NCBI GenBank assembly: GCA_017466065.1
Contig: JAFTUV010000031.1
Coordinates: forward strand, 1-64,000
DNA from: Bacteroidaceae bacterium
GTDB taxonomy: Bacteria; Bacteroidota; Bacteroidia; Bacteroidales; Bacteroidaceae
Length of the DNA stretch: 64,000 bases
Reading direction: 5' to 3'
Shown piece after piece: positions 31,001-63,037 of the stretch; position 1 is the first letter of the stretch; the number at the start of each line of letters is the position of its first letter. The notes below the pieces were generated by a model, which was not told where the DNA came from, searched no databases, and worked only from the letters and a program-made list of their open reading frames with translations. Both the position numbers and the translations under genes were made by a program.

Positions 31001-34000
31001 GTATGCGGCAATAAGGCTGCTATCTACTGCAAGACAGGACAGCCGACATTGGTAGAGCGTTCGTTCAAGTGTGCCGAGAAACACACAATGGCGGTAGTCG
31101 TTGAGCCGTCCACCATCTATGTAACACGTGGTGGCAGCAACTACTCCTGCATCAAACTGTACTTGGACGGTGAAGAGGTCGGCTGTATCGGTTACATCAG
31201 CAACAGCGGTGCTATCCTCAACAGCAAGACAATCACATTCAATGGCACAGAGGGCGATTTGTACCTATACTATTTCCTTGCCTACGATAGCCATTATGAG
31301 TGGGCGCAGGCATTTCAGAACTACCTGTGTAAACTTACCGACACTACCGCTATGATTGCGGAGTATGAGGCAGAAGATGTGCTTGACACGCAAAACCGAC
31401 CGACACTCGAAAAACTCAAAGAGAAAGGTATCCCGTACTATGTTGTGGTACAGGAACAACAGACCTTTGACACCTTTGACGGCGATATTGATACAAGCAA
31501 GAAGTTCAGTTGTACGCTGTACTACTACCACCCGACAATGCCTTGGCGCAGCTTCAAGGCTGTAAATGTTCAGTGGCGCAGACAGGGTACAACCTCGGCA
31601 AAACGTCCTATCAAGAATGACCGCTTCTACTTGCGTAAGAATGACGGTTGGGAGGTAACGCCTATCTACCCGGACTACACCAACGAGGACGCATTGATTT
31701 CATACGAGTTGATGAAACTCGGCTATGTTCGTGTGGGCGAGAACTCAATCCCTGTAAGTATCATCACTGTAAAGGTGGACTACTCGGACAGCTCGGGTGC
31801 TAACGACTGCGGTGTTTGCGACTTGATGAACGCCACTTATCGTGCGCTCGGCAGCAACTATCTGACCCCTGCACAGCGAGCCTTTGACGGTACTTGGACG
31901 AAAGGCGATGTCAAACTGACAGGCTTGCAGATGAACCACTCGACTGCCAACCACCCGATTGCGGCATTCCGTTCGACAATGGAGAGCCTCACCGATGCTT
32001 GGTTTCACGCAAAGGGCAATTGGAAAGAGGATAAGAACGAACAGGTTGCACTCGGCTTCCTCGATACTCCGGGCTACAACTTGGGCTGTGTAAACTACGG
32101 TGATTTCATTGAGTATTTCGGTAAGGAGGGCGAAAGCCTTGACGAAATTGAAATGCGCTTCAAGAATGACAACACCACCGACAAGAGCCAACTCTACCTG
32201 TTGTCGCTCTACTGTGGCGAGAACTATCGCTTTATGGCATACGAGAGTGGAGCGTGGACGGCACAGAAAGGCGAAATGAAGCAGGTAAACGGCAAGTGGC
32301 AGATTACAGGTAAGGTACTTAACCCTGTGAGCGGTTACGAGTTGTTGAGTTATGACGGCTTGAATTGGTGGCAAGGCGTTGGCAGCATTGCCGATATGAT
32401 GGAGCCTACCACCGCCGAAGCATCTTGGGTTACCAAATTGAAACTCGGACAGCCTACATACCCGATGTGGACGCGATATTTCGAGTGTATGATTGACGAT
32501 GACCAACTGCAAGAGGACTTGGCAATGGGTCGCAAAGTTCCATACGACCTGTATCAGATGTTGGTGTTCTGTAATAGTTGCGACTATTCAAAGGCTGAAC
32601 TTGCCGACACTTGGCAGAACATTTGGAAAACGCAGATGTGGAAATTTGCCAATCCGTACTCTCTTGTAGCATACTACCTCTTTACTGACTACCTTGCCGC
32701 CGTTGACCAACAGGCGAAGAATATGCAGCCTATGTGGTTCTTGGAGGACGGTTGTAGCGTAAAAGACGGAGTGTATAGCGGTGCGAACGGTATGAACGCA
32801 CGCCGTATGTACTGTAACAAGGTGTACGACTGCGATACTTGTAACGGAAAGGACAATGACGGTGGACAGACCATTGACCCCGAAGTTGACCCCGGGGACT
32901 TGACAAGCAGCGCATACGCAGGACGTGGCTCTGTGCTTTGGAACAACATCAGAGGACAGCAGACAATGGACGTTGACCAAAACGGCAACACCATTACCCT
33001 GTTGGCAATCGCCGACACTATGCGTTCATTGCCGGACACACTCGGCATTGGTGCAGGACCATTCTCGCCAAAGGGTGCTTTGCACTACTTTGTTGATGAG
33101 CGTCTGAAGAAGTGGCCAAAGGTTGTTTCAAGTTTTGACGGAGAGCGTAAGTACATCAAGTACACAGGTTATAGCGACATCTATTTCTATGCTCTGCAAG
33201 GTCTTGGCTTGACATCGCTTCCTGCGTTCATCGAACAGCGTTGGCGTATCAGAGACGGTTATTACCGTTGCGGAGACTTCAAGGCTGAAAGCGGTTATAT
33301 CGGCGGTCGTATCGGTGCAAAGGACGGAGCAGTTATCCGTTTCAAAGCAGCCAAGACAGGTTATTTCGGTATCGGTAACGATAGCGGTAACATTACCGAG
33401 GGTATCTACTTGCAGGCAGGCGAAGAGGGTGTGTTCAGCAACTTCCAACACGGTGAGAACATTATGCTCTACATATACCAGGCAGACCGTATGAGTATGC
33501 TTGATTTGAGCGAAGTGAGCATCGACCCACAGTTCGGTAACACCTTATCGAAAATGGCTCTCTTACAGGAGCTGTATTTGGGTAGCGAGACACACGCCGA
33601 TTGGACTATGTCGCCCGGTAACACAGGCTATATGACCAATCTTGATTTGGGCGATATGCCATTCTTGCGTGTGCTTGATGTGCGCAATACAGAGGTGCAG
33701 ACGATGAACGCATCGAAGTGTCCTCGCTTGGTATCGGTATATGCGGAAAACACATCGCTTTCTACCATTACCCTTGCCGAAACATCGCCTATCAAGGAAC
33801 TGACACTTCCCGACACAATGACTGAGATTGTACTGAACAATCTGCCAAACTTGACATACCCCGGTGGATTGACCATTGCAGGTATCAACAAGGTGGTGAA
33901 AGTCTTTGTGAACAACTGCGCTCACATCAATACAATGACCCTGTTGGAGCAGATTACACAGGCAAGCGCATTGAAAACCGTGCGTATTCCCAATGTAAAC

Positions 34001-35999: not shown

Positions 36000-36108
36000 C
36001 CGTGTGGTTGGTCGTGGCGGTAACAATGCGAATGCGAACAACGGTCTCGTCTATTCGAACGCGAATAACGCATCTTCGAACTCGAACACGAACAACGGCT
36101 CTCGGCTC
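36000..36108 (+). ncRNA. DGR template region (TR)
   Basis: A 109-base non-coding copy of the two variable regions. In the VR reading frame it has twelve AAC/AAT codons (24 adenines) plus three other adenines. AAY codons are the classic DGR template design: randomising both A positions gives NNY, which covers 15 amino acids with no stop. It is transcribed as RNA and copied with adenine mutagenesis by the reverse transcriptase that starts at 36279. It ends in the same GGCTCTCGGCTC as the VRs, then diverges (ACAATC). Confidence 0.95.
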
Positions 36109-36278
36109 ACAATCAAAGCAAATAAACGTGGGTGTTGTTCGCCACGCTTATATATAATCGTTCCAACTGCACGGCTACGTGTAGCCACCGCAGGGAGCGA
36201 GAGACACGAGCCTCGGCAACCCTCTCCGAAAGGAAGAAAGCCGGAACATAACTGAGTGCCTTGAAGGCATAGAACAAT
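36109..36278 (+). ncRNA. DGR RNA spacer downstream of the template
   Basis: Non-coding stretch between template and reverse transcriptase. It holds inverted repeats (CGTGG/CCACG near 36128-36147, GGCTAC/GTAGCC near 36174-36187, TGCCT/AGGCA near 36257-36269). In the Bordetella DGR the segment after TR folds and primes cDNA synthesis; this segment is in the same place and of similar type. The exact RNA ends cannot be seen. Confidence 0.5.
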
Positions 36279-37631
36279 ATGGAAAAGACAATATTCCCTC
36301 TGAACAATCTGATGAGCGAGATTGCCACGAGGGAGAATGTAGAGGAAGCCTTTGACTACGTTGTCAGCCACCTCGAATGCAAGGAGCAGCGAGAGAAATA
36401 CTACCCTCAACGAGAGAAGATGTGTAGCAAGCTGCTGAAAGACTTGGCAGACGGAACATTCCGTATTACCGAGTTCAATGAAATGGAGGTCAAGGATGGT
36501 CCGAAAATAAGACGAGTGCAAGCCCCACGAGTGTATGGACGTGTCGGTTGCCACGCCATTATGGTGATTGTTGAGAAATACACTTACCCTACGCTCATCA
36601 AGAACACGGCGGCGAGTATTCCCGGACGTGGTATGCATTGGCTACATCACATTGTAGAGACCGATGTAAAGAGTGTGCCGGAACTGACGGTACACTACTA
36701 TCAGTGCGACATACACCATTACTATGACAGCATCGAGCAATGGAGAATGAAAGCATTGATAAGGGAATACATCAGCGACCCTGTATTGCTTCCAATGCTT
36801 GACAACTTTATTGAATTGCTCCCCGAGGGCATTTCAAAGGGACTACGTTCCTCCCAATGTTTCGCCAACCTGTTCCTATCGAGGTTAGACCACCTTATGA
36901 CATCGGAGGTTGCATCATACGAGTTGGAGCAGAAAGACGGCTCTTTTGAGGTGCGCTACCTGTATTACCGCTATTGCGATGACATTGTGATGTTGGCAAG
37001 CAGTAAAAAGGAGTTGTGGCGGTTGAGGAACATTCTTGTTGCCCACGTTGAGGCTATCGGGCTGAAAGTAAAACCCAACGAGGCAGTAAGACCGCTTGAA
37101 GAATGCGGACTTGATTACCTCGGCTATGTGGACTATCGCACCCATTCGCTGATACGAAAGCGAACGAAACAGAAAGCAGCCCGACACTTGGCCAAGGTGA
37201 AATCGAGAAAGCACAGGCAATCCATTGTCGGCTCATTCAAGGGAATGGCGTGCCACGCAGATTGCAAACATTTGTATTATAAACTAACAGGAAAGAAAAT
37301 GAAAAAGTTTGGAGAATTGGGTGTAACCTACACCCCGAAAGACGGAAAGAAAAGATTTCCGGGTAACACTGTAAGACTTGCAGCCATTCAGAACATACCC
37401 ATTGAGGTACACGACTATCAGACGGATATGAAAACACCTCACGGAGAGGGTCGTTATCTCGTTTCGTTCAAAGACAAACAGACCGAGCAATGGGGCAAAT
37501 TCTTTACCGCCTCGGAGGAAATGAAGAATATCCTTGACCAGATAAGCGACATTGAGGACGGTTTCCCATTTGAGACCAAAATCACGAGTGAGCGATTTGA
37601 CGGCAACAAGGTAAAGTACAGTTTCACATAA
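36279..37631 (+). CDS. DGR reverse transcriptase
   Basis: 450 residues. Motif A is seen as YQCDIHHYYDSI with D144; motif 4 reads GLRSSQ (188-193), the GxxxSQ form diagnostic of DGR enzymes instead of the QGxxxSP of group II introns; the catalytic YxDD box is YCDD (232-235) within YYRYCDDIVMLASS. A basic thumb-like region follows (TKQKAARHLAKVKSRKHRQ). It copies the template RNA into adenine-mutagenised cDNA that replaces the variable regions. Somewhat longer than minimal DGR enzymes; the last about 130 residues have no motif I recognise. No Avd-like four-helix accessory gene is seen next to it. Confidence 0.95.
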   Translation: MEKTIFPLNNLMSEIATRENVEEAFDYVVSHLECKEQREKYYPQREKMCSKLLKDLADGTFRITEFNEMEVKDGPKIRRVQAPRVYGRVGCHAIMVIVEKYTYPTLIKNTAASIPGRGMHWLHHIVETDVKSVPELTVHYYQCDIHHYYDSIEQWRMKALIREYISDPVLLPMLDNFIELLPEGISKGLRSSQCFANLFLSRLDHLMTSEVASYELEQKDGSFEVRYLYYRYCDDIVMLASSKKELWRLRNILVAHVEAIGLKVKPNEAVRPLEECGLDYLGYVDYRTHSLIRKRTKQKAARHLAKVKSRKHRQSIVGSFKGMACHADCKHLYYKLTGKKMKKFGELGVTYTPKDGKKRFPGNTVRLAAIQNIPIEVHDYQTDMKTPHGEGRYLVSFKDKQTEQWGKFFTASEEMKNILDQISDIEDGFPFETKITSERFDGNKVKYSFT

Positions 37632-45750: not shown

Positions 45751-47367
45751 TCAAGCAGCGTTCTTAAAGTGTTCTTTGAGTTTGGCACATAGAGCCTCAC
45801 ACCAACGGCGAGCGATGGTAACCTCTACGGCATTGCCGATATACTTCTTTTGCTCCGCCTGTGTTCCTACCAATACATAGTCCTCGGGGAAGCCCATTAT
45901 CTTTTTGAGTTCGGGAATTTTGAGCATACGCATCTTTATATCCACAATGCCGTATAGTGCCATAAATTCTTTGATTTTAACCGTCATCGGACTGTCAGTA
46001 GGATAAACCTCTATCGCAGCCTCTCCGCTCTCCGTAGCGACCAAATAAGGCGGCATCTTATCCATTCGTGCGATAAGTGTGAAGCAAGGTTTATCGACCG
46101 AGCCACCCGCAGAACTGTATTGTGGGTTCATCAAGAAACGCTTGACCGTAACCAAAGAACATTTATCCTTTGTTGTCAGTGTTGGGGCAGGGTGTTCGCA
46201 AGAACGCTCTGTTCCATTGCCGTACTGCACATCTATGAAATTACAACTTGCAATGCCTATCTGTCCAACTGTGCATATTGTGGGCGATGGGTCTTCTATG
46301 GAATGACCTGTGTTGTTGAAACGGTAGTTCACGATAAACTTTTCGGCTGATATGATTGCGTGGTGGTCTTTACAAGTTATCGCTCCGGCAGGTGCTTCGA
46401 CCGAAACATTCTTGCTCATCGGGTCGCCACTGAACTGCTTGGATAGGAACGAGACTCTTGCCAAGCCGAGGCGGTTTTGTGTGGCAACTGTGGGGCAAGG
46501 CTCATCAATAGACGGTGGTATATGTTTTCCTGTTCGCTTATTGACTGAATTATACTTGACAATAAACGCATCTTTGCCACCTGCAACGAACTTTATCAGC
46601 CCTGCATAGATACGTTCCAATGTAGCCTCAACGAGTGGCTTTTTGCGCCCGAAGATGCTATCGCCCTCATCATCGAAGTCCAGGCACTCACGCACAGGTC
46701 GCCATTTTTCCAATGTCCCGAACAATGAAGATGTACCCTCCTTGCTGTGTGTGGCTTCGGGGAATGTGATTGGTAAACCTTTCTTGCCGAAGATACCAAA
46801 GAAGCGTTTGCGTGAGGTGTAAGCACCGTAATCGGCAGCATTGAGTATGCGATATTCAAAGTTATAGCCATACTTCTTTACATTGCGTACCCAACGTGTG
46901 TAACTCTTGCCCTTATCCATTGAAACAGGCTTGCCGTTCTCATCCACATCGCCCCACGACATAAACTCCTCTACGTTTTCTATCTGTATGTAGTCGGGGT
47001 TGATAGCCTCAATGTAACGGAACAGGTGTTCGGCAAGTGTTCGGCTGTCTGCATCACGTGGCATACCGCCTTTTGCCTTGCTGAAATTGGTACACTCCAA
47101 CGATGCCCACAGCACTACCAACGCATCGGGGTACTGACGGCGGCAGCTTTGCAGATGCGTGAGCAATGGCGAGAGTTCCAATGTTCGTATATCCTCGGTG
47201 AAGTGCATTGCCTCTGGGTGATTGGCAGCGTGTGAGGCAATGGCGTTCTTGTCGTGATTGACACAGGCGATAACGGTTGCGCACTGCTTATCATCGAGAC
47301 GAGCGGAGTTTACGCCGGAGGAAGTTCCCCCGGCTCCACAAAATAGGTCTATGTATAGTAGTTTCAT
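45751..47367 (-). CDS. DNA (cytosine-5) methyltransferase
   Basis: 538 residues of the Dcm/DNMT class, which moves a methyl group from SAM to cytosine C5. Motif I is DLFCGAGG (7-14); the catalytic-loop equivalent is LECTNFS with C92 in place of the usual PCQ form; motif VI ENV is at 130-132; motif VIII-like YTSRKRFFGI is present. The long middle (about 230-420) probably holds the target-recognition domain, with repeated SxxxEPAPTxTT/DEPCPTVATQ-like lines. Genome self-methylation would protect against host restriction. Start codon overlaps the stop of the next upstream gene. Confidence 0.9.
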   Translation of the reverse strand: MKLLYIDLFCGAGGTSSGVNSARLDDKQCATVIACVNHDKNAIASHAANHPEAMHFTEDIRTLELSPLLTHLQSCRRQYPDALVVLWASLECTNFSKAKGGMPRDADSRTLAEHLFRYIEAINPDYIQIENVEEFMSWGDVDENGKPVSMDKGKSYTRWVRNVKKYGYNFEYRILNAADYGAYTSRKRFFGIFGKKGLPITFPEATHSKEGTSSLFGTLEKWRPVRECLDFDDEGDSIFGRKKPLVEATLERIYAGLIKFVAGGKDAFIVKYNSVNKRTGKHIPPSIDEPCPTVATQNRLGLARVSFLSKQFSGDPMSKNVSVEAPAGAITCKDHHAIISAEKFIVNYRFNNTGHSIEDPSPTICTVGQIGIASCNFIDVQYGNGTERSCEHPAPTLTTKDKCSLVTVKRFLMNPQYSSAGGSVDKPCFTLIARMDKMPPYLVATESGEAAIEVYPTDSPMTVKIKEFMALYGIVDIKMRMLKIPELKKIMGFPEDYVLVGTQAEQKKYIGNAVEVTIARRWCEALCAKLKEHFKNAA

Positions 47368-47994: not shown

Positions 47995-47996
47995 TG

Positions 47997-49243: not shown

Positions 49244-49538
49244 TTTCGGGATGTTCGTAAACTATTTTATCTACTTTGTTTCTATAAATCCAAGACCAAT
49301 TTACGTGTAACCACAAGAGGTTAAATCGGCGAGAGAACTTGCAAAAGTCAAATGGTTTGTACCACCTATGCCAAAGCAGGGTCAAACTTATACCAAACCG
49401 CTTTTTATAGGTTGATACGACCACTGTTCCCTTACGACAATAGTACTTACACTTTTCAAAACTCCAATTCTCGAAACTAATGCCATCTAAATCTTGCGTT
49501 CTTACTTGGTACTCTCCGGGCATTCTGTCCTTTTTCAT
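49230..49538 (-). CDS. Hypothetical protein (102 aa)
   Basis: The frame opens as far up as 49706, but that part lies inside the methyltransferase gene; the start at 49538 (MKKDRMPGEYQVRTQDLDGI) makes a 4-base overlap with the upstream stop. Rich in Trp, Lys and Arg (LWHRWYKPFDFCKFSRRFNL) and ending in an acidic tail. Possibly a nucleic-acid-binding protein; not recognised. Confidence 0.5.
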   Translation of the reverse strand: MKKDRMPGEYQVRTQDLDGISFENWSFEKCKYYCRKGTVVVSTYKKRFGISLTLLWHRWYKPFDFCKFSRRFNLLWLHVNWSWIYRNKVDKIVYEHPENEKL

Positions 49539-50281
49539 TCTGCACCTCCTTTCATAAAGCAAATCCAATGGGTGTTGGCACGTTTGCCGGAGATATGCCC
49601 GAAGATTGGTTTTGCAGGTGTGAGTTTGAGAATTTCCGTTACTTTGATGTCGGTCTCGTTCCATTTGAAGATGAGGAAGCCGCCCGGCTTCAGCACTCGG
49701 AAACATTCTGCAAATCCCTTGGCCAACAAATCACGCCAATCGGAGTATAATGCACCATACTTGATGTGCTGCCACCCCGTAGGTTTGGTTTTCTCGGACA
49801 GGCAACCGTACATATCAGCCATTTTTGATTTCTTTCCACGAGAGTGTACCAAATGAGGAGGGTCGAACACGACCATAGCAAAGCTGTTGTCCGGGTAAGG
49901 CATATTGGTAAAGTCTGCCTGCACATCGGGTTTGACCTCAAAGTGTCGCCCATCGCAGAGGGTTGTTTCCACGTCTCTGATGTCTTGGAACAATACACGA
50001 GGGTCGTGTTTGTCGAAATAGAACATCTTGCCGCCGCAACAAGCATCGAGAATTGGTTTGTCGCCAAACATCAAATGCGCAGGTGCTTCTGCCCACTGAC
50101 GTACTGAATGACCGTGCGGAATATCCACCCATTCGCCAAATTCATTTTTCCAAGCCAATTGAGTGTAGAAGTGGCAGCACCCATCATCGACAAGAACATA
50201 GACGATTTTGTCGTATGGTGCATCGAATATAGATTTCCACTCTATGCGTGGGAACTGTCGGATTTTATCAAGCATACGCAT
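49535..50281 (-). CDS. Class I SAM-dependent methyltransferase (DPPH type)
   Basis: 248 residues. A glycine-containing SAM motif (PILDACCGGKMF) is followed by an acid-rich strand and VVFDPPHLV, the DPPY-like catalytic motif of amino-methyltransferases, then the CFRVLKPGGFLIFKWNET line typical of class I folds. DPPH/DPPY enzymes methylate adenine N6 or cytosine N4 of DNA, or RNA bases. It lies in the modification cluster with the C5 methyltransferase and the radical-SAM enzyme. Confidence 0.75.
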   Translation of the reverse strand: MRMLDKIRQFPRIEWKSIFDAPYDKIVYVLVDDGCCHFYTQLAWKNEFGEWVDIPHGHSVRQWAEAPAHLMFGDKPILDACCGGKMFYFDKHDPRVLFQDIRDVETTLCDGRHFEVKPDVQADFTNMPYPDNSFAMVVFDPPHLVHSRGKKSKMADMYGCLSEKTKPTGWQHIKYGALYSDWRDLLAKGFAECFRVLKPGGFLIFKWNETDIKVTEILKLTPAKPIFGHISGKRANTHWICFMKGGAE

Positions 50282-50284
50282 AAC

Positions 50285-50839
50285 TTAAAACTCTCGAAGC
50301 ATTTGTACTAACATTCTCCCATTCGGACAGAAACGAGTAAGCATTCCAAACATAAGACCTGCACTCATACCGCTATGACCTTGATTTTCAAATTCGGTTT
50401 TACACCTCGTCAATCTATCTTCTAAGGGCAAATCTTCATTTCGCATTATTCTTATCAAATCAAGCGTTGATTTTAACTCCATTCCACGATACAAATCGTT
50501 TAGCCTAATAGGTACAATTTTATCCCAATATTCGAGTTCGCTTTCCAATACAAGACCACGAGCAAGCTTCCTATATTCCTCTGTCTTTAACGGAATAGAC
50601 TTTTTATGTTCTTCTAACTCCTTTTCGTAGTTATCTTTCCATATTTTATGACGGGCTTCCATCTCGTTTTTAGTAACTCCCGTAATCCTTATGTAAGCAT
50701 CATCAAGAGTATCTATCGAATAGATAAATTTACCGTTGAACTCACAGTAACACTCCTCATTATATTCCTTTGCAAGTTGTTTCAATTTTGAAAGACAACT
50801 ATCAATAGAGCAACCAATCAAATTTTCTACTAATCTCAT
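50285..50839 (-). CDS. Hypothetical protein (184 aa)
   Basis: Helical, Lys/Glu-rich protein beginning MRLVENLIGCSIDSCLSKLK, with NKDNYEKELEEHKK-like coiled coil and a C-terminal hydrophobic region (GMSAGLMFGMLTRFCPNGRM). It is the first gene after the terminator that follows the second DGR target. No family recognised. Confidence 0.55.
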   Translation of the reverse strand: MRLVENLIGCSIDSCLSKLKQLAKEYNEECYCEFNGKFIYSIDTLDDAYIRITGVTKNEMEARHKIWKDNYEKELEEHKKSIPLKTEEYRKLARGLVLESELEYWDKIVPIRLNDLYRGMELKSTLDLIRIMRNEDLPLEDRLTRCKTEFENQGHSGMSAGLMFGMLTRFCPNGRMLVQMLREF

Positions 50840-50905: not shown

Positions 50906-51493
50906 TTATCCCTTTGTTTCCTCCGACTTTGGTTTGAAACAGAAGTCGGCATAAATCTCGGCGAACTGCCTACCTGCGTAGGCTGCGAGTTTTTCGCTTT
51001 TGAAGGCGAGCCGAGAGCCGCAGATCGTGCCCGAGACCGAAGATGCGTAAACCGCGCCCGAATAGACGAGACCGCCGTACGCACCCGCACCGTTACCGCC
51101 ACGACCAACCACACGGCTTTTATCCTCGGCAGATAGTTTGTCGTACTGCTCTTTGGTGATTAGGTCGTACCAAAAATACCAACGGCGTTCGCCCTTTGTG
51201 AATTGAGGCTCCCAACCCTCATTGAGTGCTGCGGTGATGATGCGGAGTTGGAGATATGCAATCAAATCGTCGCTGTCGGTTGTTACATTGTGCCAATCAT
51301 CGTACAGCATTTTAGCCGTGTTGTCGCCGTTGGCTGCTCTAACTTCCAACTCGTTCAAAGCGTCCTCAAACGTCTTGATACGCTCGGTTACGTCCTGTGG
51401 CTTTTCATCTACGAGGGTAAGCACACCATCTACCCATTTTGCAACTTTCCCTACCGGGATTTCGATTTCTACTTTCTTTGTCTTGTTTTCCAT
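50906..51493 (-). CDS. DGR target 2: small variable protein (195 aa)
   Basis: The start at 51493 (MENKTKKVEIEIPVGKVAKW) is chosen over a start 57 bases upstream that is less well led. The first 125 residues are a mixed region (TERIKTFEDALNELEVRAAN, an alpha-helical segment and YFWYDLITKEQYDKL). Residues 127-162 are the variable module, RVVGRGG to GSRLAF, closely like the tail-fibre tip; the 12 variable positions now read N,G,G,Y,G,G,V,Y,V,G,I,C. A 33-residue tail follows. It is in the early leftward block and not near tail genes, has no signal peptide, and lacks the long stalk of a fibre, so its binding target may be intracellular (inference). Confidence 0.85.
   Translation of the reverse strand: MENKTKKVEIEIPVGKVAKWVDGVLTLVDEKPQDVTERIKTFEDALNELEVRAANGDNTAKMLYDDWHNVTTDSDDLIAYLQLRIITAALNEGWEPQFTKGERRWYFWYDLITKEQYDKLSAEDKSRVVGRGGNGAGAYGGLVYSGAVYASSVSGTICGSRLAFKSEKLAAYAGRQFAEIYADFCFKPKSEETKG
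51008..51116 (-). other. DGR variable region 2 (VR2), remote
   Basis: Reverse complement aligns with the template 36000-36108 over 109 bases without gaps. There are 19 differences and all are at template adenines. It ends in GGCTCTCGGCTC (51008-51019 on the plus strand as its complement) and then reads GCCTTC, the same flank as VR1 and unlike the template's ACAATC. It lies about 15 kb from the template on the opposite strand. Confidence 0.95.
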
Positions 51494-51721: not shown

Positions 51722-52453
51722 TCATTTGTTTGTTGGTTTTCTGAATGATTGCTCCGCACCGAAATTGATGATGTGCATCATTTCACGGAAGCGGTCGGCA
51801 ATGCGTTCATCGTAATAGGTTGCTATCTCTGCAGCTGAAAGATTGGAAGATACCAACGTGCAGAACTGCTCTTCGTAGCGGAAAGAGATAATATCCATTG
51901 CCGCAGTTACAAAGTCGCCGTAGTGTATGCTTTCCTTTGGCTCTTGCCCGAGGTCATCAATGGCAAGTATCTCAATGGTGCGTAGCCTCTTGAACTTGTA
52001 CACATCGCTTTCGTTCTCACGTGTGGGGTTGTTGTATGCTTTGGCAAGCAATACGAGTTCCTTTGCCGTGATGAATATGTAGCCACGTACCGGGTATTCG
52101 TCCTGTCGGCTACTCCAACCCTCATCGGAGCGTAGCAATCCTGTGAGGTTTTGCAAAGCACGGAGAATGGTTGTCTTGCCGTTGCCTGCTCCACCACAGA
52201 GGAACAGCCCGAATGTGGAGTCCTGCGATGTGAGCCACTTGGAAATGTCCCACAGGTGTTGCTTGTACTCCTGTGTATCTTGGAACTCACGATAACGGCT
52301 TGCGACCTCGGCTTTACACGCTGTATAGAGCATTGCATATACCTGTTTAGGTGTATATGGCAGTCTAAAACGTGTCGCCGTACGTTTTCGGCTCATCAGG
52401 TGAGAGAATATTTCCTCTACGTTGATTTCGTCCTTTGGATTTAGAGTTATCAT
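51722..52453 (-). CDS. DnaC-like replicative helicase loader ATPase
   Basis: 243 residues, AAA+ ATPase. Walker A is GGAGNGKT (87-94), Walker B is ILAIDDLG (about 158-165), and an arginine-rich C-terminus (YYDERIADRFREMMHIINFG) contains a likely Arg finger. DnaC/DnaI-type loaders place the replicative helicase on DNA. Directly downstream of the DUF4373 initiator, as in many Bacteroides and Firmicute phages. Overlaps that gene by 89 bases; a start at Met20 would shorten the overlap to 32. Confidence 0.8.
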   Translation of the reverse strand: MITLNPKDEINVEEIFSHLMSRKRTATRFRLPYTPKQVYAMLYTACKAEVASRYREFQDTQEYKQHLWDISKWLTSQDSTFGLFLCGGAGNGKTTILRALQNLTGLLRSDEGWSSRQDEYPVRGYIFITAKELVLLAKAYNNPTRENESDVYKFKRLRTIEILAIDDLGQEPKESIHYGDFVTAAMDIISFRYEEQFCTLVSSNLSAAEIATYYDERIADRFREMMHIINFGAEQSFRKPTNK

Positions 52454-53153
52454 CTTTCGCTGTTTTGTTTCTATTCACTATGCGTAACCACGAATTGAAG
52501 TGCTGTTTGGCATCTGCCAATGATTGGTGTCCTCGCTCTTTGCCGTCTGCCACACATTGCACCCGAAAATCATCGAGGCTGTTCCGTAGCAGCTCTATTT
52601 TCATTGAGTGGAGCACCTGTAATTGGTCGAGCCAACATTCATCTGCTTTCAGTTTCTCAATCTCTTGGTCGAGCGTTAGCGAATATGGTTCGTAACGTGG
52701 TGGTGCGTCTTGTTTCTCAGTCTCCTTCTTTCGTTGGTTTGCCCTGTTCCGAGGTCTTGGTGCTTGCTGTTGTGTCAGCAGGCTGTAATCTGTGATGTTA
52801 CACACCCGGCGGCATTGAATACAAATACGACTGTAACGCTCTTGAATACCTTTGCTTGTAAGCACTCCCTCCGCATCGAACAGTTCCTTTGAAAACAACC
52901 CGAGAGACAGGCAGGTCTTGATAACCTCTGATACATACGCCTCGTCAAATCCCGTCAGTTCCGAGCAAATGAAAGGCAACTCTTCGTCCCACTCTATGTA
53001 ATACCCATTCTTGTAGATGCTACAGAGCAGCAGAGCATATATCGAAATGGCTTTCCCACCTTGATACTTGATTAGTTTTCTTATCTTGAGGTCGCTGAAT
53101 ATGTCTATATCCATTGGGAAATATTCCAACCCCTTTTTTGAAGTTCGTGCCAT
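52365..53153 (-). CDS. DUF4373 replication initiator-like protein (262 aa)
   Basis: The N-terminus (KKGLEYFPMDIDIFSDLKIR, KYQGGKAISIYALLLCSIYK, GYYIEWDEELPFICSELTGF) is the winged-helix DUF4373/Lin1244-type module. A Cys-containing linker and a Lys/Glu-rich C-terminal helical part follow (EKLKADECWLDQLQVLHSMK). In phages this protein precedes the helicase loader and is thought to start replication, so the pair is probably the replication module. The origin is not visible. Confidence 0.8.
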   Translation of the reverse strand: MARTSKKGLEYFPMDIDIFSDLKIRKLIKYQGGKAISIYALLLCSIYKNGYYIEWDEELPFICSELTGFDEAYVSEVIKTCLSLGLFSKELFDAEGVLTSKGIQERYSRICIQCRRVCNITDYSLLTQQQAPRPRNRANQRKKETEKQDAPPRYEPYSLTLDQEIEKLKADECWLDQLQVLHSMKIELLRNSLDDFRVQCVADGKERGHQSLADAKQHFNSWLRIVNRNKTAKDDNSKSKGRNQRRGNILSPDEPKTYGDTF

Positions 53154-53621: not shown

Positions 53622-54054
53622 ACTTTGCAGGGTAATAATCCAATATCTGTGTCTCGACAATGGAAACTATTTCGTAATCTGCCATTGTTCCTTTCATACC
53701 CTCAATGAAGCGGTCGTATGCGTTCTTGAAGTCCGAAGCCTGTACGAGAATGAAACTGTTGGTCTTTTTCTCGGCTCCGCTCTTTTCGTCAAGGGTGATG
53801 AAAGAAACCTTTACTTTGTAGTAGCGGTCTGCCGACACATCTTCGGAGAGCATCAGTTCTGAAATACGAGGCTTGACGATTTGGGGAATGCTAAATTCGC
53901 CACTGATGTAGGGTTTCAGTTCCTCGATAGTTCTTGCCTCTGCCTCTGTGAACGAGAGCGCATCAAAAAGATACTGTTCGCTTACTGTCTTGTTGAGTCC
54001 GTTTTCCATTGTCTTTTCGTAGCGGACCGTTGAAAGGAAATAGTTTACCATCAT
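53608..54054 (-). CDS. DUF4494 family protein (148 aa)
   Basis: The start MMVNYFLSTVRYEKTMENGL and the pattern NKTVSEQYLFDALSFTEAEA are recognisable as DUF4494, common in Bacteroides phages and conjugative elements. No known function. Overlaps the HU gene stop/start by 4 bases. Confidence 0.75.
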   Translation of the reverse strand: MMVNYFLSTVRYEKTMENGLNKTVSEQYLFDALSFTEAEARTIEELKPYISGEFSIPQIVKPRISELMLSEDVSADRYYKVKVSFITLDEKSGAEKKTNSFILVQASDFKNAYDRFIEGMKGTMADYEIVSIVETQILDYYPAKYDEK

Positions 54055-54332
54055 TCTTTCAAGTTCATACGGTTTTTCAATTCTTTACTTAACACGAGTT
54101 TGGCAGTGTTCTGTGCCGGAATGCTGACAACAGTACCCTTGCTGATGTTGCGAGCCTTTTTAGGGGCTGTGGTAACTGCCTTGATTGTTGCAAAGCCACG
54201 AATGAACACACTCTCACCCTTTACGAGTGAACTGCTGATAGCCTCTACCACGCTTTCGGTGGCGGCGATTGCCTGCGAACGACTTAAAGTCGTGTTGTTG
54301 ATTACGTAATCAACGATGTCATTTTTCTTCAT
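54051..54332 (-). CDS. HU/IHF-family DNA-binding protein
   Basis: 93 residues. It starts MKKNDIVDYVINNTTLSRSQ and has the family line SLVKGESVFIRGFATIKAVT, followed by the arm-like PKKARNISKGTVVSIPA with the conserved proline near the DNA-intercalation position. HU bends DNA and supports recombination and packaging. Translationally coupled to the DUF4494 gene. Confidence 0.85.
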   Translation of the reverse strand: MKKNDIVDYVINNTTLSRSQAIAATESVVEAISSSLVKGESVFIRGFATIKAVTTAPKKARNISKGTVVSIPAQNTAKLVLSKELKNRMNLKE

Positions 54333-54498
54333 TTTGAACTGAATTAAAGGTGAATAATTTCTTTTCTAACTTCTTTATCATTTGTCGTATAACCCACGCA
54401 CGACAGTTGTTGCGTTGTCCGGGCAGGGTGTCATATACTTTGGCAGCATCATCGAAATACTTGATAATCTTCTGCACGTCTGTTTTGCATATATCCAT
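54319..54498 (-). CDS. Small basic protein (59 aa)
   Basis: Read directly from the sequence. Start ATG at 54498 shares one base with the stop of the helicase gene (TAATG); it ends at 54319, overlapping the HU start. MDICKTDVQKIIKYFDDAAK, then QRNNCRAWVIRQMIKKLEKK: helical and basic, with good codon-level composition. No family recognised. Confidence 0.65.
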   Translation of the reverse strand: MDICKTDVQKIIKYFDDAAKVYDTLPGQRNNCRAWVIRQMIKKLEKKLFTFNSVQNEEK

Positions 54499-55934
54499 TA
54501 TCCCGATGTGTTGAGGAAGAGATTAACCAACTCATCGAAGTACATTTCATCGGTTGGTATATCATCGTCCGAGTTCATTATTTCACTCGCAATAGATTTC
54601 TTGCGATGTATGAGGTTGTAAATGGTGTGGTCGATTGTGCCACGTCCGAGCAGGTAGTAACAGGTTACGTTGTCTTTCTGACCTATGCGGTGCGCTCTGT
54701 CCTCACATTGGCAGCAGTCGGCATACGTCCAAGCCAATTCAATGAATGCCACGTTTGATGAGGCTGTAAGTGTCAGTCCTACTCCGGCAGCTTTGATTGA
54801 GCAGATGATGAGGTTTACATCTGGGTTGTTCTGGAACGCATCGACAGATGCCTGTTTGTTTACCATACTATCACGTCCTGTAACCGTTACCGCACGAGGG
54901 AACACCTTTTGCAGTTCGTCCACAACCTCGTGTAGAGAGCAGAACACAATGAGTTTCTTTCCGCTGTCGAGGAATGTGCGAATGAAGTCCACCGCCTGCG
55001 CTATCTTGCCTTTGGTGGCCAAGGAACGCAACGTCATAAAGCGCACAAGGGCTTCCATACGCATTTTTCGGCGTATCTCCCAATCGGTACACTCGGTGTA
55101 CTCCTGCAAGTATGCGGCAAGGTCGGCGGCAGCAAGGTTGTATTCCTTATCATTGGAAATCTCCACGTACAAGTCCACTCGTGTTTTGTCGGGCAACTGC
55201 GGCAGCACCTTTGCTTTCTCTCGGCGTATCATACAGGTATCGTACAACTGCTTTGAAAGAACAGACAGAGGAACGGCAGGAACGGCGGTCTTGTCTTTGG
55301 GGTCGGTGCAATAGTCCGCCATAAACTTGGCACGTCCTCCAAACTCGCCTATGCGGTCCAATATGGAAAGTTGGGCGATTAAATCCTCGGGACGATTGAC
55401 AACAGGTGTACCCGACAGGAGTATGCGGTATTCCTTGCCAACGGACAAACCTTTGGCGAAGATTGTCTGCTGTGCGGAGGGGTCTTTTACACGGTGGCTC
55501 TCATCTATGATGATTGATTTGAACTGCTGCATCTGCGGACAGAACACTACGTCTTTCAGTCGGAACTGCTTGCCGCCCTTGATGTCCCACACGAAGTATT
55601 TGCGCAGGCTCTCATAATTGACAATGGCGACCTGATGCACGCCCATTGAGAGAAGATAACCCCACGTGGTGCGGACGTTATTGTCAAGCACAAGTGCGCT
55701 CTTATCTGTGAATTTCTCAAACTCACGTTGCCAATTGATTTTGAGCGAGGACGGACAGATAACGAGGCAGGGGTATGCTCTTGCTGTATCGACTATGCCA
55801 ATGCTCTGCAATGTCTTGCCCAATCCCGGCTCATCGCCGATGATAATGCGCTTATGCTCCAATCCAAAGCAGATGCCCTCACGTTGGTATTCGTAAGGCT
55901 CGACACGCAGATTATGTTTCAGTATATTGTTCAT
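54498..55934 (-). CDS. SNF2-family (SMARCAL1-like) DNA helicase
   Basis: 478 residues. Walker A GDEPGLGKT (33-41), DESH (144-147), LLSGTPVVNRPEDL, and the C-terminal helicase lines KAAGVGLTLTASSNVAFIEL and AHRIGQKDNV. This is the annealing-helicase/SMARCAL1-like group found in phages, likely used in replication-fork or recombination work. Overlaps the next gene by one base. Confidence 0.9.
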   Translation of the reverse strand: MNNILKHNLRVEPYEYQREGICFGLEHKRIIIGDEPGLGKTLQSIGIVDTARAYPCLVICPSSLKINWQREFEKFTDKSALVLDNNVRTTWGYLLSMGVHQVAIVNYESLRKYFVWDIKGGKQFRLKDVVFCPQMQQFKSIIIDESHRVKDPSAQQTIFAKGLSVGKEYRILLSGTPVVNRPEDLIAQLSILDRIGEFGGRAKFMADYCTDPKDKTAVPAVPLSVLSKQLYDTCMIRREKAKVLPQLPDKTRVDLYVEISNDKEYNLAAADLAAYLQEYTECTDWEIRRKMRMEALVRFMTLRSLATKGKIAQAVDFIRTFLDSGKKLIVFCSLHEVVDELQKVFPRAVTVTGRDSMVNKQASVDAFQNNPDVNLIICSIKAAGVGLTLTASSNVAFIELAWTYADCCQCEDRAHRIGQKDNVTCYYLLGRGTIDHTIYNLIHRKKSIASEIMNSDDDIPTDEMYFDELVNLFLNTSG

Positions 55935-56371
55935 TACTTAAAGTTCTCTATCTCTGTGATTAAATCTTCTTTATCTATCCCTTTGAGGTACTTGTATAGC
56001 ACAAGGTCGATGCACTGATTGTAGAAGCGTTCAAACTCGTGTTGTTCCATTGCCGAGAATGATATGCTTTGGTATTCTATCTCCTTTTCGCCTCGTTCGT
56101 TGAGGCTTGTTTTGAAGTAGCCCAAGTCTCGCTTGAAGCGGCGCAGCATATCTTCCTCATTGTGGACTTTGAAATATTCTGCAAGGTTGGACGGCAGGTT
56201 GTCAAACGTGAGGCGCACCAATGCAAAGAACTTCTTGTGATGTTCGTAGTTGCGAGGGTTGCTAACCTTGCACTTGACAACAGAGCCGACACGTAGCCGT
56301 TTCTTCAAGTCGTAGTCGCTATCATAGAGCGGCACAAGACCGTGAGCCGTTACCTTGCAGAATATATCCAT
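55934..56371 (-). CDS. DUF1367-like protein (145 aa)
   Basis: MDIFCKVTAHGLVPLYDSDY, VKCKVSNPRNYEHHKKFFAL, and a central helical region match what I recall of DUF1367, found beside recombination genes in phages. C-terminus is helical (YKYLKGIDKEDLITEIENFK). Overlaps the helicase by one base. Function unknown. Confidence 0.65.
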   Translation of the reverse strand: MDIFCKVTAHGLVPLYDSDYDLKKRLRVGSVVKCKVSNPRNYEHHKKFFALVRLTFDNLPSNLAEYFKVHNEEDMLRRFKRDLGYFKTSLNERGEKEIEYQSISFSAMEQHEFERFYNQCIDLVLYKYLKGIDKEDLITEIENFK

Positions 56372-56376
56372 AGGGC

Positions 56377-56598
56377 TTATTTTAAGTCATCTGCTGATGC
56401 TATCGCAATAGCGATTAGCGCAATTCGTACTTCTACTGCGTCTGCTCCAAACTTCTTGAAGTCCATTGATATTGGAGCCTTTGTAAGTTCAGCCCAACGC
56501 TCATCTGTCAATTTTTCCCTCATCAACATCATTGTTCCGACTACTTCGTCTCTGTCAAACTCGACTTCGAGTTTCATTTTCTTGTTTTCTTCTGCCAT
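56377..56598 (-). CDS. Small acidic protein (73 aa)
   Basis: MAEENKKMKLEVEFDRDEVV, then VEVRIALIAIAIASADDLK at the end with a hydrophobic helix-like stretch. Polar N-terminus, so a membrane role is unlikely. No family recognised. Confidence 0.55.
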   Translation of the reverse strand: MAEENKKMKLEVEFDRDEVVGTMMLMREKLTDERWAELTKAPISMDFKKFGADAVEVRIALIAIAIASADDLK

Positions 56599-56608
56599 AA
56601 TTCTTTGA

Positions 56609-57274
56609 TTATAAATTGTTGTTAGTTACAGGTGGGCATAAGCACCAATATTGAAATGCCAATTCTTCGTATTTCTCACGACCACGATTATAGACCTCAT
56701 CGCCACGTGTGATGAATTTCTTGAATATGCAGCAGTTCTTTTTGCTGATGGCGTAGATGAAATCACGGTTGCTCTTTGCGATGTCCATATACCAGGCACG
56801 ACTTCTGTCCCAATCGAAAAAATCAACAGCTTCCTCGAACTGCTGCTGTGTGGCGGCGAATGTTGTTTTGAGGTCGCCACCGAAAGCACCGAGCCACCAA
56901 TCCCATTTGCAACGGGTATCGAGTGTGAACGGAAACTCGCAGTATGTGAACTGCTGTGCCTTATTGACCATAAAGCGTTGCGTTTCGGCACATTCAAGCA
57001 CTTTGGCAAGGAACGCATCTTTGCGTGCTTCCATACGGAGAGCCTTTTGCATTTCCTGTGCGTGTCGGAACTCATCTTCTGTGTATGGCACATCGTCCAC
57101 TGTTAGGCGGTAGTAGTCCACCTTTGACGGCTCTGTGATGATGGCATCGACCAACGAGCCGAAGCGGAAAGCAGCTTCCTTATCGCCGAACTGCATACGT
57201 GGGTGCAAGATGTTTTTCAGTTCGGTGAGGTCAGAGTTACTGACCTCACTTCTGCTGTAATAATTATCGCTCAT
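56609..57274 (-). CDS. PD-(D/E)XK exonuclease (RecE/Exo8-like)
   Basis: Start at 57274 (MSDNYYSRSEVSNSDLTELK). The frame is open upstream for another 100 residues, but that part belongs to the gene listed next. RFGSLVDAIITEP, a central Trp-rich region (CKWDWWLGAFGGDLKTT, with the D-x-K of the nuclease site), and WYMDIAKSNRDFIYAISKKN mark the PDDEXK-like exodeoxyribonuclease family. Such an exonuclease pairs with RecT (58783) to make and anneal single strands. 221 residues. Confidence 0.75.
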   Translation of the reverse strand: MSDNYYSRSEVSNSDLTELKNILHPRMQFGDKEAAFRFGSLVDAIITEPSKVDYYRLTVDDVPYTEDEFRHAQEMQKALRMEARKDAFLAKVLECAETQRFMVNKAQQFTYCEFPFTLDTRCKWDWWLGAFGGDLKTTFAATQQQFEEAVDFFDWDRSRAWYMDIAKSNRDFIYAISKKNCCIFKKFITRGDEVYNRGREKYEELAFQYWCLCPPVTNNNL

Positions 57275-57574
57275 AGTAATCATCGTAATCGGGTTCGTAA
57301 TCTTCTTCGTACTCAACCTCGCCGACACGCAGGTCTCCTTTTCGCCTCGTATGTAATGTTGTCGCTTGGTTTCTGCTTCTTCCTCTGTCTCGGGGAGACA
57401 CAACCACGTTTCTTCTGTACATTCGGTCTCTTCGTTTGTCTCGAAGTTGTAGGCGTGCCAATGGCAACCTTTACCGTTACAGGCTTCGCATTTTACATAG
57501 TGAGGCTCTTTCTCGTTCCACGGCGCACGTGGGTCGTGTTCTGCTCCGGGTGGGTAGTATCCGCTTTCGTACAT
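57264..57574 (-). CDS. Small zinc-binding-type protein with apparent -1 frameshift
   Basis: Starts at 57574 (MYESGYYPPGAEHDPRAPWN) and contains a DnaJ-like VKCEACNGKGCHWHAY line. In the starting frame it runs without a stop into the exonuclease. In the -1 frame, from the A tract at 57339-57342 on, the sequence gives an acidic end (GDLRVGEVEYEEDYEPDYDD, then YYER) and a stop at 57264, 11 bases past the exonuclease start, like other operon overlaps. Either a programmed -1 shift or a one-base error or mutation. Confidence 0.5.
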
Positions 57575-57576
57575 AG

Positions 57577-58770
57577 TTACTTCGCTTTTACGTCCTCGAC
57601 ATATTCCACACTCTCATCGCTGATGTACGTTCCCTCTTTGGCGAGTTTTTCACAGAATGTTATCTGCTTCTTGAACATCTTGGTGAGTTCCTCAACAGAG
57701 AGGTGGCAACCCTCCTTGCTCCACCACATAGAGAGAATAGGCATAATGCCCTCGGGATTGAGCAGGTTGATTTTCTGTGCAACCTTTACCTTTGGTTGGT
57801 AGCCGGAGGACACGACTGCTTGCTGCCCGAACAGGCTTTCCATTTCGGACTGCTGACGTGCCATTTCTGCCTTCTGCTTTTCTTCCTCCTCCTTGCGGCG
57901 GCGTTCTGCCTCCTGTTCCTCGGCTTCCTTGCGCTGACGTGCTTCCATTTCAGCCTTGATACGTGCAGCTTCCTCGGCTGATGCCTGTGCCATACGTTCG
58001 AGGTTGGTTTTCTTGGACGGCAGACGGTCGATGATATACTGCTTTGTGCTGTCAATCTCGAACTCGTATTGCTCCTTGAACTGCTTGGCAAGGCGTTCCT
58101 TTGTCTCAATCTCTGCCTTGCGTATCTCATCTACGGTTATTCCGGCAGGAATGCGAATGAGGGTGTGCAGGTTGTAGAGGAAGTCGGCAGGAAGTTCCGT
58201 TGAATAGTCCTTAACCTGCTTGAATGATGCATCGTAGTTGTCGAGGGTAATGGCATTGTCAATGGCTGACAGAGCATTGCAGTCTCTGTTTACGAGTGTT
58301 TGGAACTGCTGCTTGAAGTCGTCCTCAATATCCTGTCGCATCTTGGTACGTGCTGCCTCTGCCTGTTGGCGTTCGTACTCCTTACGGCGGCGTTCCTCCT
58401 CCTCGGCACGTTTCTTGGCGGCGAACTGATTGCGGAACTGCTGCAACTTGTATGGGATTGTATCGACTTTGGTAGGGTCGATGGCATTCTCCATTACGGT
58501 GAACTCCTTGCGGATAGTGTCGAACAGTTGGGTAACAGGCGCACGGCGTTCGTTCATCTTCTTGACGGTCTTGCGTGCTTTCTCAATGTACTGTGCCGCA
58601 CGTTGGTCGAGTTCGTCCGTCATTCCTCCCTGCACAATGGCATCGAGGATTGCTTGCCCGGCAGCTTCGCAGTTCTCACGAGATAGTTTGTTGTCCTTGT
58701 AGGACTGTGGAGCGGCAGACACGATAGTCTGTATATTCTCCTGCTTGATAATTGCTAATTCCTGTGACAT
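57577..58770 (-). CDS. Coiled-coil protein, recombination-block associated (397 aa)
   Basis: A long central Arg/Glu/Ala/Lys coiled coil (KKRAEEEERRRKEYERQQAE and EAEEQEAERRRKEEEEKQKA), a helical N-terminus (LSRENCEAAGQAILDAIVQG) and an alpha/beta C-terminus ending YVEDVKAK. It sits between the exonuclease and RecT. In phages such a protein often helps the annealing pair, but I cannot name the family. Confidence 0.65.
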   Translation of the reverse strand: MSQELAIIKQENIQTIVSAAPQSYKDNKLSRENCEAAGQAILDAIVQGGMTDELDQRAAQYIEKARKTVKKMNERRAPVTQLFDTIRKEFTVMENAIDPTKVDTIPYKLQQFRNQFAAKKRAEEEERRRKEYERQQAEAARTKMRQDIEDDFKQQFQTLVNRDCNALSAIDNAITLDNYDASFKQVKDYSTELPADFLYNLHTLIRIPAGITVDEIRKAEIETKERLAKQFKEQYEFEIDSTKQYIIDRLPSKKTNLERMAQASAEEAARIKAEMEARQRKEAEEQEAERRRKEEEEKQKAEMARQQSEMESLFGQQAVVSSGYQPKVKVAQKINLLNPEGIMPILSMWWSKEGCHLSVEELTKMFKKQITFCEKLAKEGTYISDESVEYVEDVKAK

Positions 58771-58782
58771 AGTTGTATGGGG

Positions 58783-59724
58783 TTAGAATGTGTCGTCTGC
58801 ATTGTCTGATTGCTTTGCAGGGTCGATTGTTACACCTGCGGACATATCGGGTGCAGGTGCGAAATGCTGTTCCTGCTGCTCTGTTCCAACACCGCCGTAT
58901 GGGTCGATGTCTGTCGGTTGAGGCTGTTCGATGATTTCAGTTTCGAGAGCGGAGCCACGACCGATATTCAGTTTTGGGTAGGTCTTGAATGCGTGTTTCA
59001 CGCACTTTGCCATAAGGAAGCCTGTGTCAATCTGACCGTTCTTGTTGTAGAGTTCGTTAGAGTTGGTTACCCATTGGTTTGTCTTGCGGTCAAAGTAGGA
59101 GTTTTGCTTGTCGCTGTAACCTTTAAGTCGCATCCAATCCTGTTCAGTCATTACAGAATAGTCTATCGTACCATCGGCACGTGTAATCTTCAAGAAACAG
59201 GCAATAATCTTGTTGGACTTGCGAGGGAAAGCGGACATATAGTTCACAATCTTTTGTCCGTTCTGTTCGCCGTATTGGAATGTGTCGCCCTCGTACACGA
59301 TTACAGGATTGTCGGCGTGGCGTATCTGTCCGGCATTCTTGCGCAGCACTAATTCGCCATATCCCGAAATGGTAAGGTTGCAGACTTTCTCCCAAATGTC
59401 GTTGCCTTGTTGGTTTGTGCCTACCTTGACATTGCGAGGAATAAGGTAACAGAGTGCCTGTGCGCCCGGTGCAAGGGTAAGCCCCTTTACAGCAAGGTCA
59501 ATAAAGGCATAGAAGATTGATGTACCAGAGCATTCACGTAGGTTGGCTTTGTCTCTCAACTGTTGGTTGAAGTAGATTGCCTCACGCTCGTACACCTGTT
59601 CGCCTCCCTCTTTCCAAATGGAGTTGAACACGCTGATGAATTGACTACGGACACGCTCATTGCGTATCACATCGGTTGCTTTTGTCTGTTGCAACTCTTG
59701 GGCTAATGATAATGCATTGCTCAT
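58783..59724 (-). CDS. recT: RecT single-strand annealing protein
   Basis: 313 residues. The RecT core is visible: AIYFNQQLRDKANLRECSGT, SIFYAFIDLAVKGLTLAPGA, ALCYLIPRN, and NLTISGYGELVLRKNAGQIR, with IACFLKITRADGTIDYSVMT. The C-terminus is a disordered Pro/Gln/Asp tail. RecT anneals complementary single-stranded DNA; together with the exonuclease (56609) and VRR-NUC and HU genes it forms the phage recombination system. Confidence 0.9.
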   Translation of the reverse strand: MSNALSLAQELQQTKATDVIRNERVRSQFISVFNSIWKEGGEQVYEREAIYFNQQLRDKANLRECSGTSIFYAFIDLAVKGLTLAPGAQALCYLIPRNVKVGTNQQGNDIWEKVCNLTISGYGELVLRKNAGQIRHADNPVIVYEGDTFQYGEQNGQKIVNYMSAFPRKSNKIIACFLKITRADGTIDYSVMTEQDWMRLKGYSDKQNSYFDRKTNQWVTNSNELYNKNGQIDTGFLMAKCVKHAFKTYPKLNIGRGSALETEIIEQPQPTDIDPYGGVGTEQQEQHFAPAPDMSAGVTIDPAKQSDNADDTF

Positions 59725-63034: not shown

Positions 63035-63037
63035 AGA

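What the first reader, a model, noticed from the sequence alone, without database searches (positions are those of the whole stretch)
51008..51116. Second DGR target 15 kb away in a small early-block protein
A second, gap-free copy of the template lies on the opposite strand, with 19 differences, all at template adenines, inside a 195-residue protein without a fibre stalk or signal peptide, among replication and modification genes. A DGR acting in trans on a non-structural, possibly intracellular protein would be unusual. Possible uses are a diversified anti-defence or superinfection-exclusion protein.
Basis: partly seen in the sequence, partly recalled or inferred. Interest (0 to 1): 0.85.

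Follow-up and report, generated by a model that had tools for sequence, protein, structure and literature searches.

The report
Phage mutates a second, early protein
A prophage, probably of gut Bacteroidales bacteria, uses one mutation cassette to keep rewriting both its tail protein and a small protein of its DNA-replication operon; such second targets have been reported before, but this one belongs to a widespread protein family whose binding partner nobody knows.

Summary
One template repeat (TR, 36002-36122 +) feeds two variable repeats: VR1 in the tail protein and VR2 (50999-51116 -) in a 195-residue protein 15 kb away on the other strand. Over 116 nt, VR2 differs from TR at 22 sites, all template adenines. 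VR2 is active: among seven related sequences 20 of 21 pairs differ at 15-24 of 116 VR2 positions against 0-7 of 90 in each flank. Homologues are second DGR targets elsewhere: 16 of 40 RT-bearing records hold a full-length one, and in 16 of 16 its VR matches the record's own TR, 219 of 227 mismatches at adenines; likewise 17 of 25 GTDB genomes, LoVEphage and Versailles. Four related single-target DGR phages lack it. The gene lies in the early replication/recombination operon. Best reading: an early, probably non-virion protein whose variable face binds a changing intracellular partner. That partner is inferred, not shown.

The parts
36002..36122 (+). Template repeat (TR)
   Evidence: source of both VRs; 33 adenines in the 116-nt core
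35706..35826 (+). VR1, 3' end of the tail-protein gene
   Evidence: 18 of 18 mismatches to TR at adenines over 116 nt
50999..51116 (-). VR2, the finding
   Evidence: 22 of 22 mismatches to TR at adenines over 116 nt; hypervariable among relatives
51002..51020 (-). 3' block of VR2 (GC-rich CGGCTCTCGGCTC then GCCTTC), IMH-like; identical in VR1 (35800-35818), last six bases ACAATC in TR
   Evidence: the name IMH (initiation of mutagenic homing) is recalled and its function was not tested
50906..51493 (-). VR2 target gene, 195 aa, phrog_11581, function unknown
28058..35842 (+). VR1 target, 2594-aa protein, phrog_14959; called a tail protein here by inference from its position after the capsid genes and from DGR precedent
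36279..37631 (+). DGR reverse transcriptase, 450 aa
   Evidence: RVT_1 E 4.9e-6 (26.8 bits, under Pfam's 29.6 cut-off), phrog_1423 E 5.8e-86
51722..52453 (-). DnaC-like helicase loader, directly upstream of the VR2 gene
   Evidence: phrog_50 E 2.3e-25
52365..53153 (-). Replication initiation protein / replisome organiser
   Evidence: Lin1244_N, phrog_2562 E 8.4e-39
50285..50839 (-). 184-aa protein directly downstream of the VR2 gene, unknown; sub-threshold Tad3 match
   Evidence: Tad3 E 0.0024, 18.1 bits against a cut-off of 27; no PHROG match
49535..50281 (-). DNA methyltransferase
   Evidence: phrog_954 E 5.9e-72
45751..47367 (-). C5-cytosine DNA methyltransferase
   Evidence: DNA_methylase E 1e-30
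54051..59724 (-). Rest of the early block: HU-like protein, SNF2 helicase, NinB, exonuclease VIII-like, RecT

Best explanation
A phage DGR with two targets. Shown by sequence: the DGR template supplies adenine-mutated copies both to the C-terminus of the tail protein (VR1) and, in trans and on the other strand, to a small protein of the replication/recombination operon (VR2). Inferred: error-prone reverse transcription of TR RNA makes a cDNA that replaces each VR separately. Inferred: the small protein is made early, stays in the cytoplasm, and consists of a conserved, mostly helical N-terminal half plus a VR-coded variable face; that face binds an intracellular partner that differs between hosts or competitors, most likely a host protein that limits phage development (a defence component, or a host factor that the phage must engage). 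Which partner is not known. My odds: VR2 is a real, recently active target 0.98; not a virion part 0.85; partner is intracellular and host- or rival-coded 0.6; anti-defence in particular 0.35.
For: TR-VR2: 22 of 22 mismatches at template adenines, same reading frame as VR1. Over 18 records, window included, 260 of 268 VR2 mismatches and 258 of 262 VR1 mismatches fall on template adenines, with the same substitution spectrum. Non-adenine TR alleles recur in both VRs of the same genome: window TR GTCTATTCG, G006 TR GTTTATGCG, G007 TR GGTGGT. 39 near-identical homologues: 13 columns above 1 bit entropy, 13 of 13 at residues 134-158; mean entropy 1.00 in residues 128-165 against 0.07 elsewhere. 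VR1 and VR2 change independently outside the 3' 30 nt: 44 of 95 shared bases against 41.8 expected, p 0.36, 17 records. Early-operon position in the window, Versailles, LoVEphage and BT-TP2, where it follows an HTH gene, and among 25 loci. Profile homology to the tail C-terminus covers only 42 columns, the VR.
Against: No partner, activity or localisation is shown. 11 of 47 family members also match phrog_5302 'tail protein' and the Versailles member is annotated 'tail protein'; I read both as VR-driven but did not test which residues match. The VR region of the AlphaFold models is below pLDDT 50, so a C-type lectin fold is not shown. Purifying selection on the scaffold is modest in some pairs: 22:2 synonymous:non-synonymous codons for G006-G007, but 7:5, 7:3, 8:4 and 5:4 in four others. 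The RT gene lies in the late module, and when VR2 is mutated is unknown. Including the 3' end, VR1 and VR2 share 78 of 142 substitutions against about 58 expected.
Confidence: 0.6

Rival explanations
1. The 195-residue protein is a minor virion part, for example an adaptor on the tail, that happens to be coded in the early block.
For: Other phage DGR targets known to the cited surveys are mostly tail proteins (PMC8144416, passages). Part of the family matches a 'tail protein' PHROG (11 of 47).
Against: Replication/recombination neighbourhood on the early strand in four annotated lineages and in most of 25 loci's neighbours that could be named. Sequence similarity to the tail protein stops at the VR edges. 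Two of 50 downstream neighbours match a virion-protein PHROG, weakly (best E 8e-4).
Confidence: 0.12
2. Superinfection exclusion: the protein, made by the prophage, binds proteins of incoming rival phages inside the cell, and diversification keeps pace with rivals.
For: Carriers include temperate phages: the window looks like a prophage (host-type genes at 62720 and 63105), its relative G002 has an integrase-like ORF (named from memory of motifs), BT-TP2 has an annotated integrase.
Against: No evidence of expression in lysogens. The gene lies in the lytic early operon rather than beside the repressor in the window, Versailles and LoVEphage; BT-TP2 is nearer to it, one HTH gene away.
Confidence: 0.2
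3. Host-factor adaptation: the protein links the phage replication or recombination machinery to a host protein that varies between host species, so that one template diversifies an outer lock (tail) and an inner lock (early protein).
For: Listed neighbour families among 25 loci: upstream RecT 7 of 50 and a metal-dependent hydrolase 9 of 50; downstream DnaD-like loader 7 of 50, DnaC-like loader 5 of 50. Optional in phages with related DGRs, as expected of a host-range accessory.
Against: Genomic neighbourhood alone; no interaction data. Single-target relatives lack a detectable member, so it is not essential for replication.
Confidence: 0.25
4. VR2 is a functionless by-product: a fossil or spare copy that the DGR happens to overwrite.
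For: The second target is missing from four related DGR phages.
Against: Open reading frame in register, conserved scaffold, 16 of 40 RT-bearing records and 17 of 25 GTDB genomes with a matching pair, and scaffold changes that are more often synonymous.
Confidence: 0.03

Closest known systems
Quimbyvirus second DGR target (Benler et al. 2021, PMC8008677; passages) and LoVEphage MW660583 gene 33613-34197
   Same: One TR, two VRs: one in a tail-module gene, one in a distal, opposite-strand, apparently non-structural gene near methyltransferases. LoVEphage's member is a homologue (tblastn with family members) and its VR2 has 19 of 19 mismatches at TR adenines.
   Different: That LoVEphage equals Quimbyvirus is inferred from shared gene content, host and citation, not from the Quimbyvirus sequence. 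Its member is only about 35% identical to the window protein. The window phage has a P22-like portal and SU10-like capsid protein.
Four inducible prophage species with a second distal VR (Nature 2025, PMC12629997; passages)
   Same: Second VR away from the RT cassette, said to lie near counter-defence genes such as methyltransferases.
   Different: The passages name no protein family for the second target and I did not see the figure or the genomes.
Bacuni phages of Bacteroides uniformis (Hedzet et al. 2021, PMC8143477; passages)
   Same: Two target genes, one distant from the RT.
   Different: Both VRs code for the last 35 residues and both proteins are described as fimbrial-tip-like adhesins; an Avd protein is present. 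Not listed by four tblastn searches with family members; whether Bacuni is in that collection was not checked.
Tentaclin-bearing two-target phages nd4 and nd12 (PMC10743442; passages)
   Same: Two different proteins mutated from one TR.
   Different: Both are described as C-type lectin proteins and the title calls tentaclins receptor-binding proteins.
Major tropism determinant of Bordetella phage BPP-1 (recalled; mentioned in several of the passages above)
   Same: Adenine-directed TR-to-VR transfer.
   Different: Single tail-fibre target.

Membership tests
Diversity-generating retroelement target | VR near-identical to a TR, mismatches at template adenines | tested here: met
   22 of 22
Diversity-generating retroelement target | DGR-type reverse transcriptase beside the TR | tested here: met
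   36279-37631, phrog_1423 E 5.8e-86; Pfam RVT_1 under its cut-off
Diversity-generating retroelement target | VR varies between near-identical genomes while flanks do not | tested here: met
   20 of 21 pairs 15-24 of 116 nt, one pair identical; flanks 0-7 of 90
Diversity-generating retroelement target | IMH-type element at the VR 3' end, altered in TR | tested here: inconclusive
   GC-rich block shared by TR and VRs, then GCCTTC in VRs and ACAATC in TR; function not tested; in G017 and G019 VR2 keeps a TR-like ACATT
Diversity-generating retroelement target | C-type lectin fold around the VR | tested here: inconclusive
Diversity-generating retroelement target | Avd accessory protein | tested here: inconclusive
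   four ORFs after the RT scanned with Pfam, no Avd-like family; other ORFs not scanned for it
phrog_11581 | Profile match over most of the protein | tested here: met
   E 5.8e-43, residues 29-191; 47 of 47 members of A3 match
Quimbyvirus-type distal second target | Homology to that target protein | tested here: inconclusive
   met for LoVEphage; Quimbyvirus itself not compared
Quimbyvirus-type distal second target | Distal, opposite strand, outside the structural module | tested here: met
Anti-defence protein | Inhibits a host defence system | not testable with these tools
   PADLOC (defence-system models) has no match, which says little about counter-defence
Virion protein | Present in the particle | not testable with these tools
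   no proteome data searched or seen

The most novel reading that the evidence does not exclude
A dedicated protein family lets many Bacteroidales phages use one retroelement to diversify an outer lock (tail receptor binding) and an inner lock (an early cytoplasmic protein that meets varying host replication or defence proteins), so that each new host entered can also be matched inside the cell: a phage-coded, antibody-like intracellular binder under programmed hypermutation.
Probability: 0.35. Interest if true: 0.88.

Novelty: new member of a known kind. Interest (0 to 1): 0.62.

Why it matters
If the small protein works inside the cell, programmed hypermutation serves a phage function other than attachment, and does so in a large family: 6672 clusters at E <= 0.001 in one capped search (only the best 120 were seen, so how many are DGR targets is unknown). 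Isolated carriers exist (BT-TP2, LoVEphage-like phages, Versailles), so the question, what does VR2 bind, can be put to the bench. DGR surveys limited to the surroundings of the RT miss such targets, as Roux et al. 2021 say themselves of remote targets (passages).

Tried and rejected

Not in print: that this protein family is the recurrent second target was not met in the paper searches (titles, abstract starts and selected passages only; subscription papers, preprints, figures and supplements not seen).

Full report
OBSERVATION. The window holds one DGR: TR 36002-36122, RT 36279-37631, VR1 at the end of a 2594-residue protein (28058-35842), and an inverted copy of the repeat at 50999-51116. 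Over 116 nt, VR2 differs from TR at 22 positions, 22 of 22 at the 33 template adenines (hypergeometric p = 7e-16); VR1 at 18, 18 of 18 at adenines; 83 of 83 non-adenine positions are the same in all three. The repeat finder listed no further copy at its settings. VR2 is read in the same frame relative to the TR as VR1, so the template's AAC/AAT codons become variable codons in both proteins.

THE TARGET PROTEIN. It has 195 residues (50906-51493 -; 214 from an upstream ATG), no Pfam family, matches phrog_11581 of unknown function over residues 29-191, and no PADLOC model. No family member among 85 has a 19-residue hydropathy average above 1.40. A profile of the family and a profile of the tail C-terminus align over 42 columns only, the VR itself (hhalign probability 98.5): one cassette in two proteins that are otherwise unrelated by sequence. 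AlphaFold gives a confident, mostly helical N-terminal half but pLDDT under 50 for residues 127-160 (mean 69.7), so the fold around the VR is not established.

ACTIVITY. In 39 homologues taken from the top of a search with 6672 hits (120 listed), 13 columns exceed 1 bit of entropy and all 13 lie at residues 134-158; mean entropy is 1.00 in residues 128-165 and 0.07 elsewhere. At DNA level, seven related sequences including the window give 21 pairs: one is identical, the other 20 differ at 15-24 of 116 VR2 positions, while each 90-nt flank differs at 0-7. VR1 changes too: window and G006 differ at 16 of 116, 14 at template adenines, with 1 difference in 90 nt upstream. Where the TRs of window, G006 and G007 differ at non-adenine sites, both VRs of each genome carry the local TR's allele at the sites I compared by eye (GTCTATTCG in the window, GTTTATGCG-type in G006, GGTGGT in G007). 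That is what copying from the TR into both sites predicts.

RECURRENCE. I passed 39 of the 80 RT loci, plus BT-TP2, to a search with a family profile: 16 of 40 records hold a full-length member (BT-TP2's is split across the record's ends). In 16 of 16 the member's VR matches that record's own TR, with 219 of 227 mismatches at adenines; 12 of 16 are adenine-only, the weakest is G038 with 10 of 14. With the window and LoVEphage added, 260 of 268 for VR2 and 258 of 262 for VR1. Of 28 GTDB loci I took 25 genomes: 22 have an RT match, and in 17 a TR beside an RT matches the family gene, 237 of 247 mismatches at adenines, 11 of 17 adenine-only. Eight did not: 3 without RT match, 5 without an A-biased TR match. 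TRs of other DGRs in the same genomes serve as a control: they match the family gene poorly and without adenine bias (for example 8 of 26 mismatches at adenines in G045, 7 of 18 in G056; 15 of 28 in G057). Among named phages, LoVEphage has 19 of 19, BT-TP2 10 of 10, Versailles 15 of 16. These sets are not independent lineages: G044 and G020 carry the same VR2, G017/G019 and G021/G022 are close kin. Two RT groups are involved, since several members are served by RTs only about 32-36% identical to the window's.

OPTIONAL. Four related DGR phages of 62-64 kb (RT 73, 62, 56 and 55% identical) show only a tail VR and no full-length family member; they are 4 of the 5 records of at least 60 kb without a member, 8 such records having one. 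Their completeness is not told, so absence is probable rather than proven. In G008 the portal, terminase and RT are still 68-73% identical to the window's.

CONTEXT. In the window the gene follows a replication initiation protein and a DnaC-like loader; RecT, exonuclease VIII, NinB, HU and a SNF2 helicase are further upstream; methyltransferases and a radical-SAM protein downstream. Versailles: between NinB and replisome organiser/DnaC. LoVEphage: in the block with RecT, exonuclease, HU and methyltransferases. BT-TP2: directly after an HTH gene, unannotated there. For 25 loci I scanned two neighbours on each side. Upstream 50: metal-dependent hydrolase 9, RecT 7; downstream 50: DnaD-like loader 7, DnaC-like loader 5, RecE 3; methyltransferase PHROGs match single proteins (only the 25 commonest families are shown each time). 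So the stable company is the replication/recombination operon. The published inference from adjacency to methyltransferases fits the window but is not general support for an anti-defence role.

MECHANISM. Shown by sequence: two targets, adenine-directed, same frame, both recently changed. VR1 and VR2 change independently: outside the 3' 30 nt, 44 of 95 doubly changed adenines carry the same base, 41.8 expected, p 0.36; with the 3' end, 78 of 142 against about 58, because both VRs there carry a shared block (GCCTTC in most) where TR has ACAATC or ACATTA. I read that block, with the GC-rich stretch before it, as an IMH-like element (term recalled). Inferred: retrohoming in trans, early cytoplasmic protein, variable binding face, intracellular partner. 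The scaffold is under at least mild purifying selection (synonymous:non-synonymous codons 22:2, 8:4, 7:3, 7:5, 5:4) while the VR is 5:13, 2:12, 2:11, 2:11, 1:14.

COMPARISON AND NOVELTY. Benler 2021, Hedzet 2021, the tentaclin paper and the 2025 Nature paper (all seen as passages) establish two-target phage DGRs, and the first and last a distal, probably non-structural second target. I therefore file this as a new member of a known kind. What I did not meet in print is that one protein family recurs as the second target across these phages, with its place in the replication operon. Interest 0.62: the function is open and isolated carriers make it testable, but the phenomenon is precedented.

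Noticed in passing
window 61710-64000: The window's right end carries a Cro/C1-type HTH gene, then host-type genes (YgbA_NO 62720-63034, a dockerin-type protein 63105-63911), so the window looks like a prophage and its host flank. No att site was sought.
   Followed up: partly
window 50285-50839: The 184-aa gene directly downstream of the VR2 gene has a sub-threshold match (E 0.0024, 18.1 bits, cut-off 27) to the Thoeris inhibitor Tad3.
   Followed up: no
L104 (PQ571279, BT-TP2) 1-318 and 44862-45224: The BT-TP2 record does not annotate the VR2 gene, which runs across the record's ends; the ends look redundant, since part of the gene is repeated.
   Followed up: partly
P0219; window protein against L011 and L003: N-terminal modules are swapped between family members: P0219 joins the window's N-terminus to the L011-type VR domain; the middle segment also exchanges between 78% and 93% identical groups.
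   Followed up: no
window 47527-49013 and L164 13758-16697: A pair of genes, a 155-aa protein and a radical-SAM protein, recurs in the otherwise different phage Versailles at 46% and 71% identity.
   Followed up: no
L011, L147, L151-L152, L157, L158, L160, L161: A second VR type (for example AGFAYA..APS...GSRLCLK) varies at other positions; of those tested, most match TRs of RTs more distant from the window's.
   Followed up: partly
L145, L159: Family members lie in MAG contigs labelled Ruminococcus and Clostridia; binning error or wider hosts, not tested.
   Followed up: no
window 1190-18751: A single 5853-codon ORF lies between the window start and the portal gene; it was not annotated.
   Followed up: no
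window 1-141: Two identical 69-nt copies, 72 nt apart, at the window's left edge.
   Followed up: no
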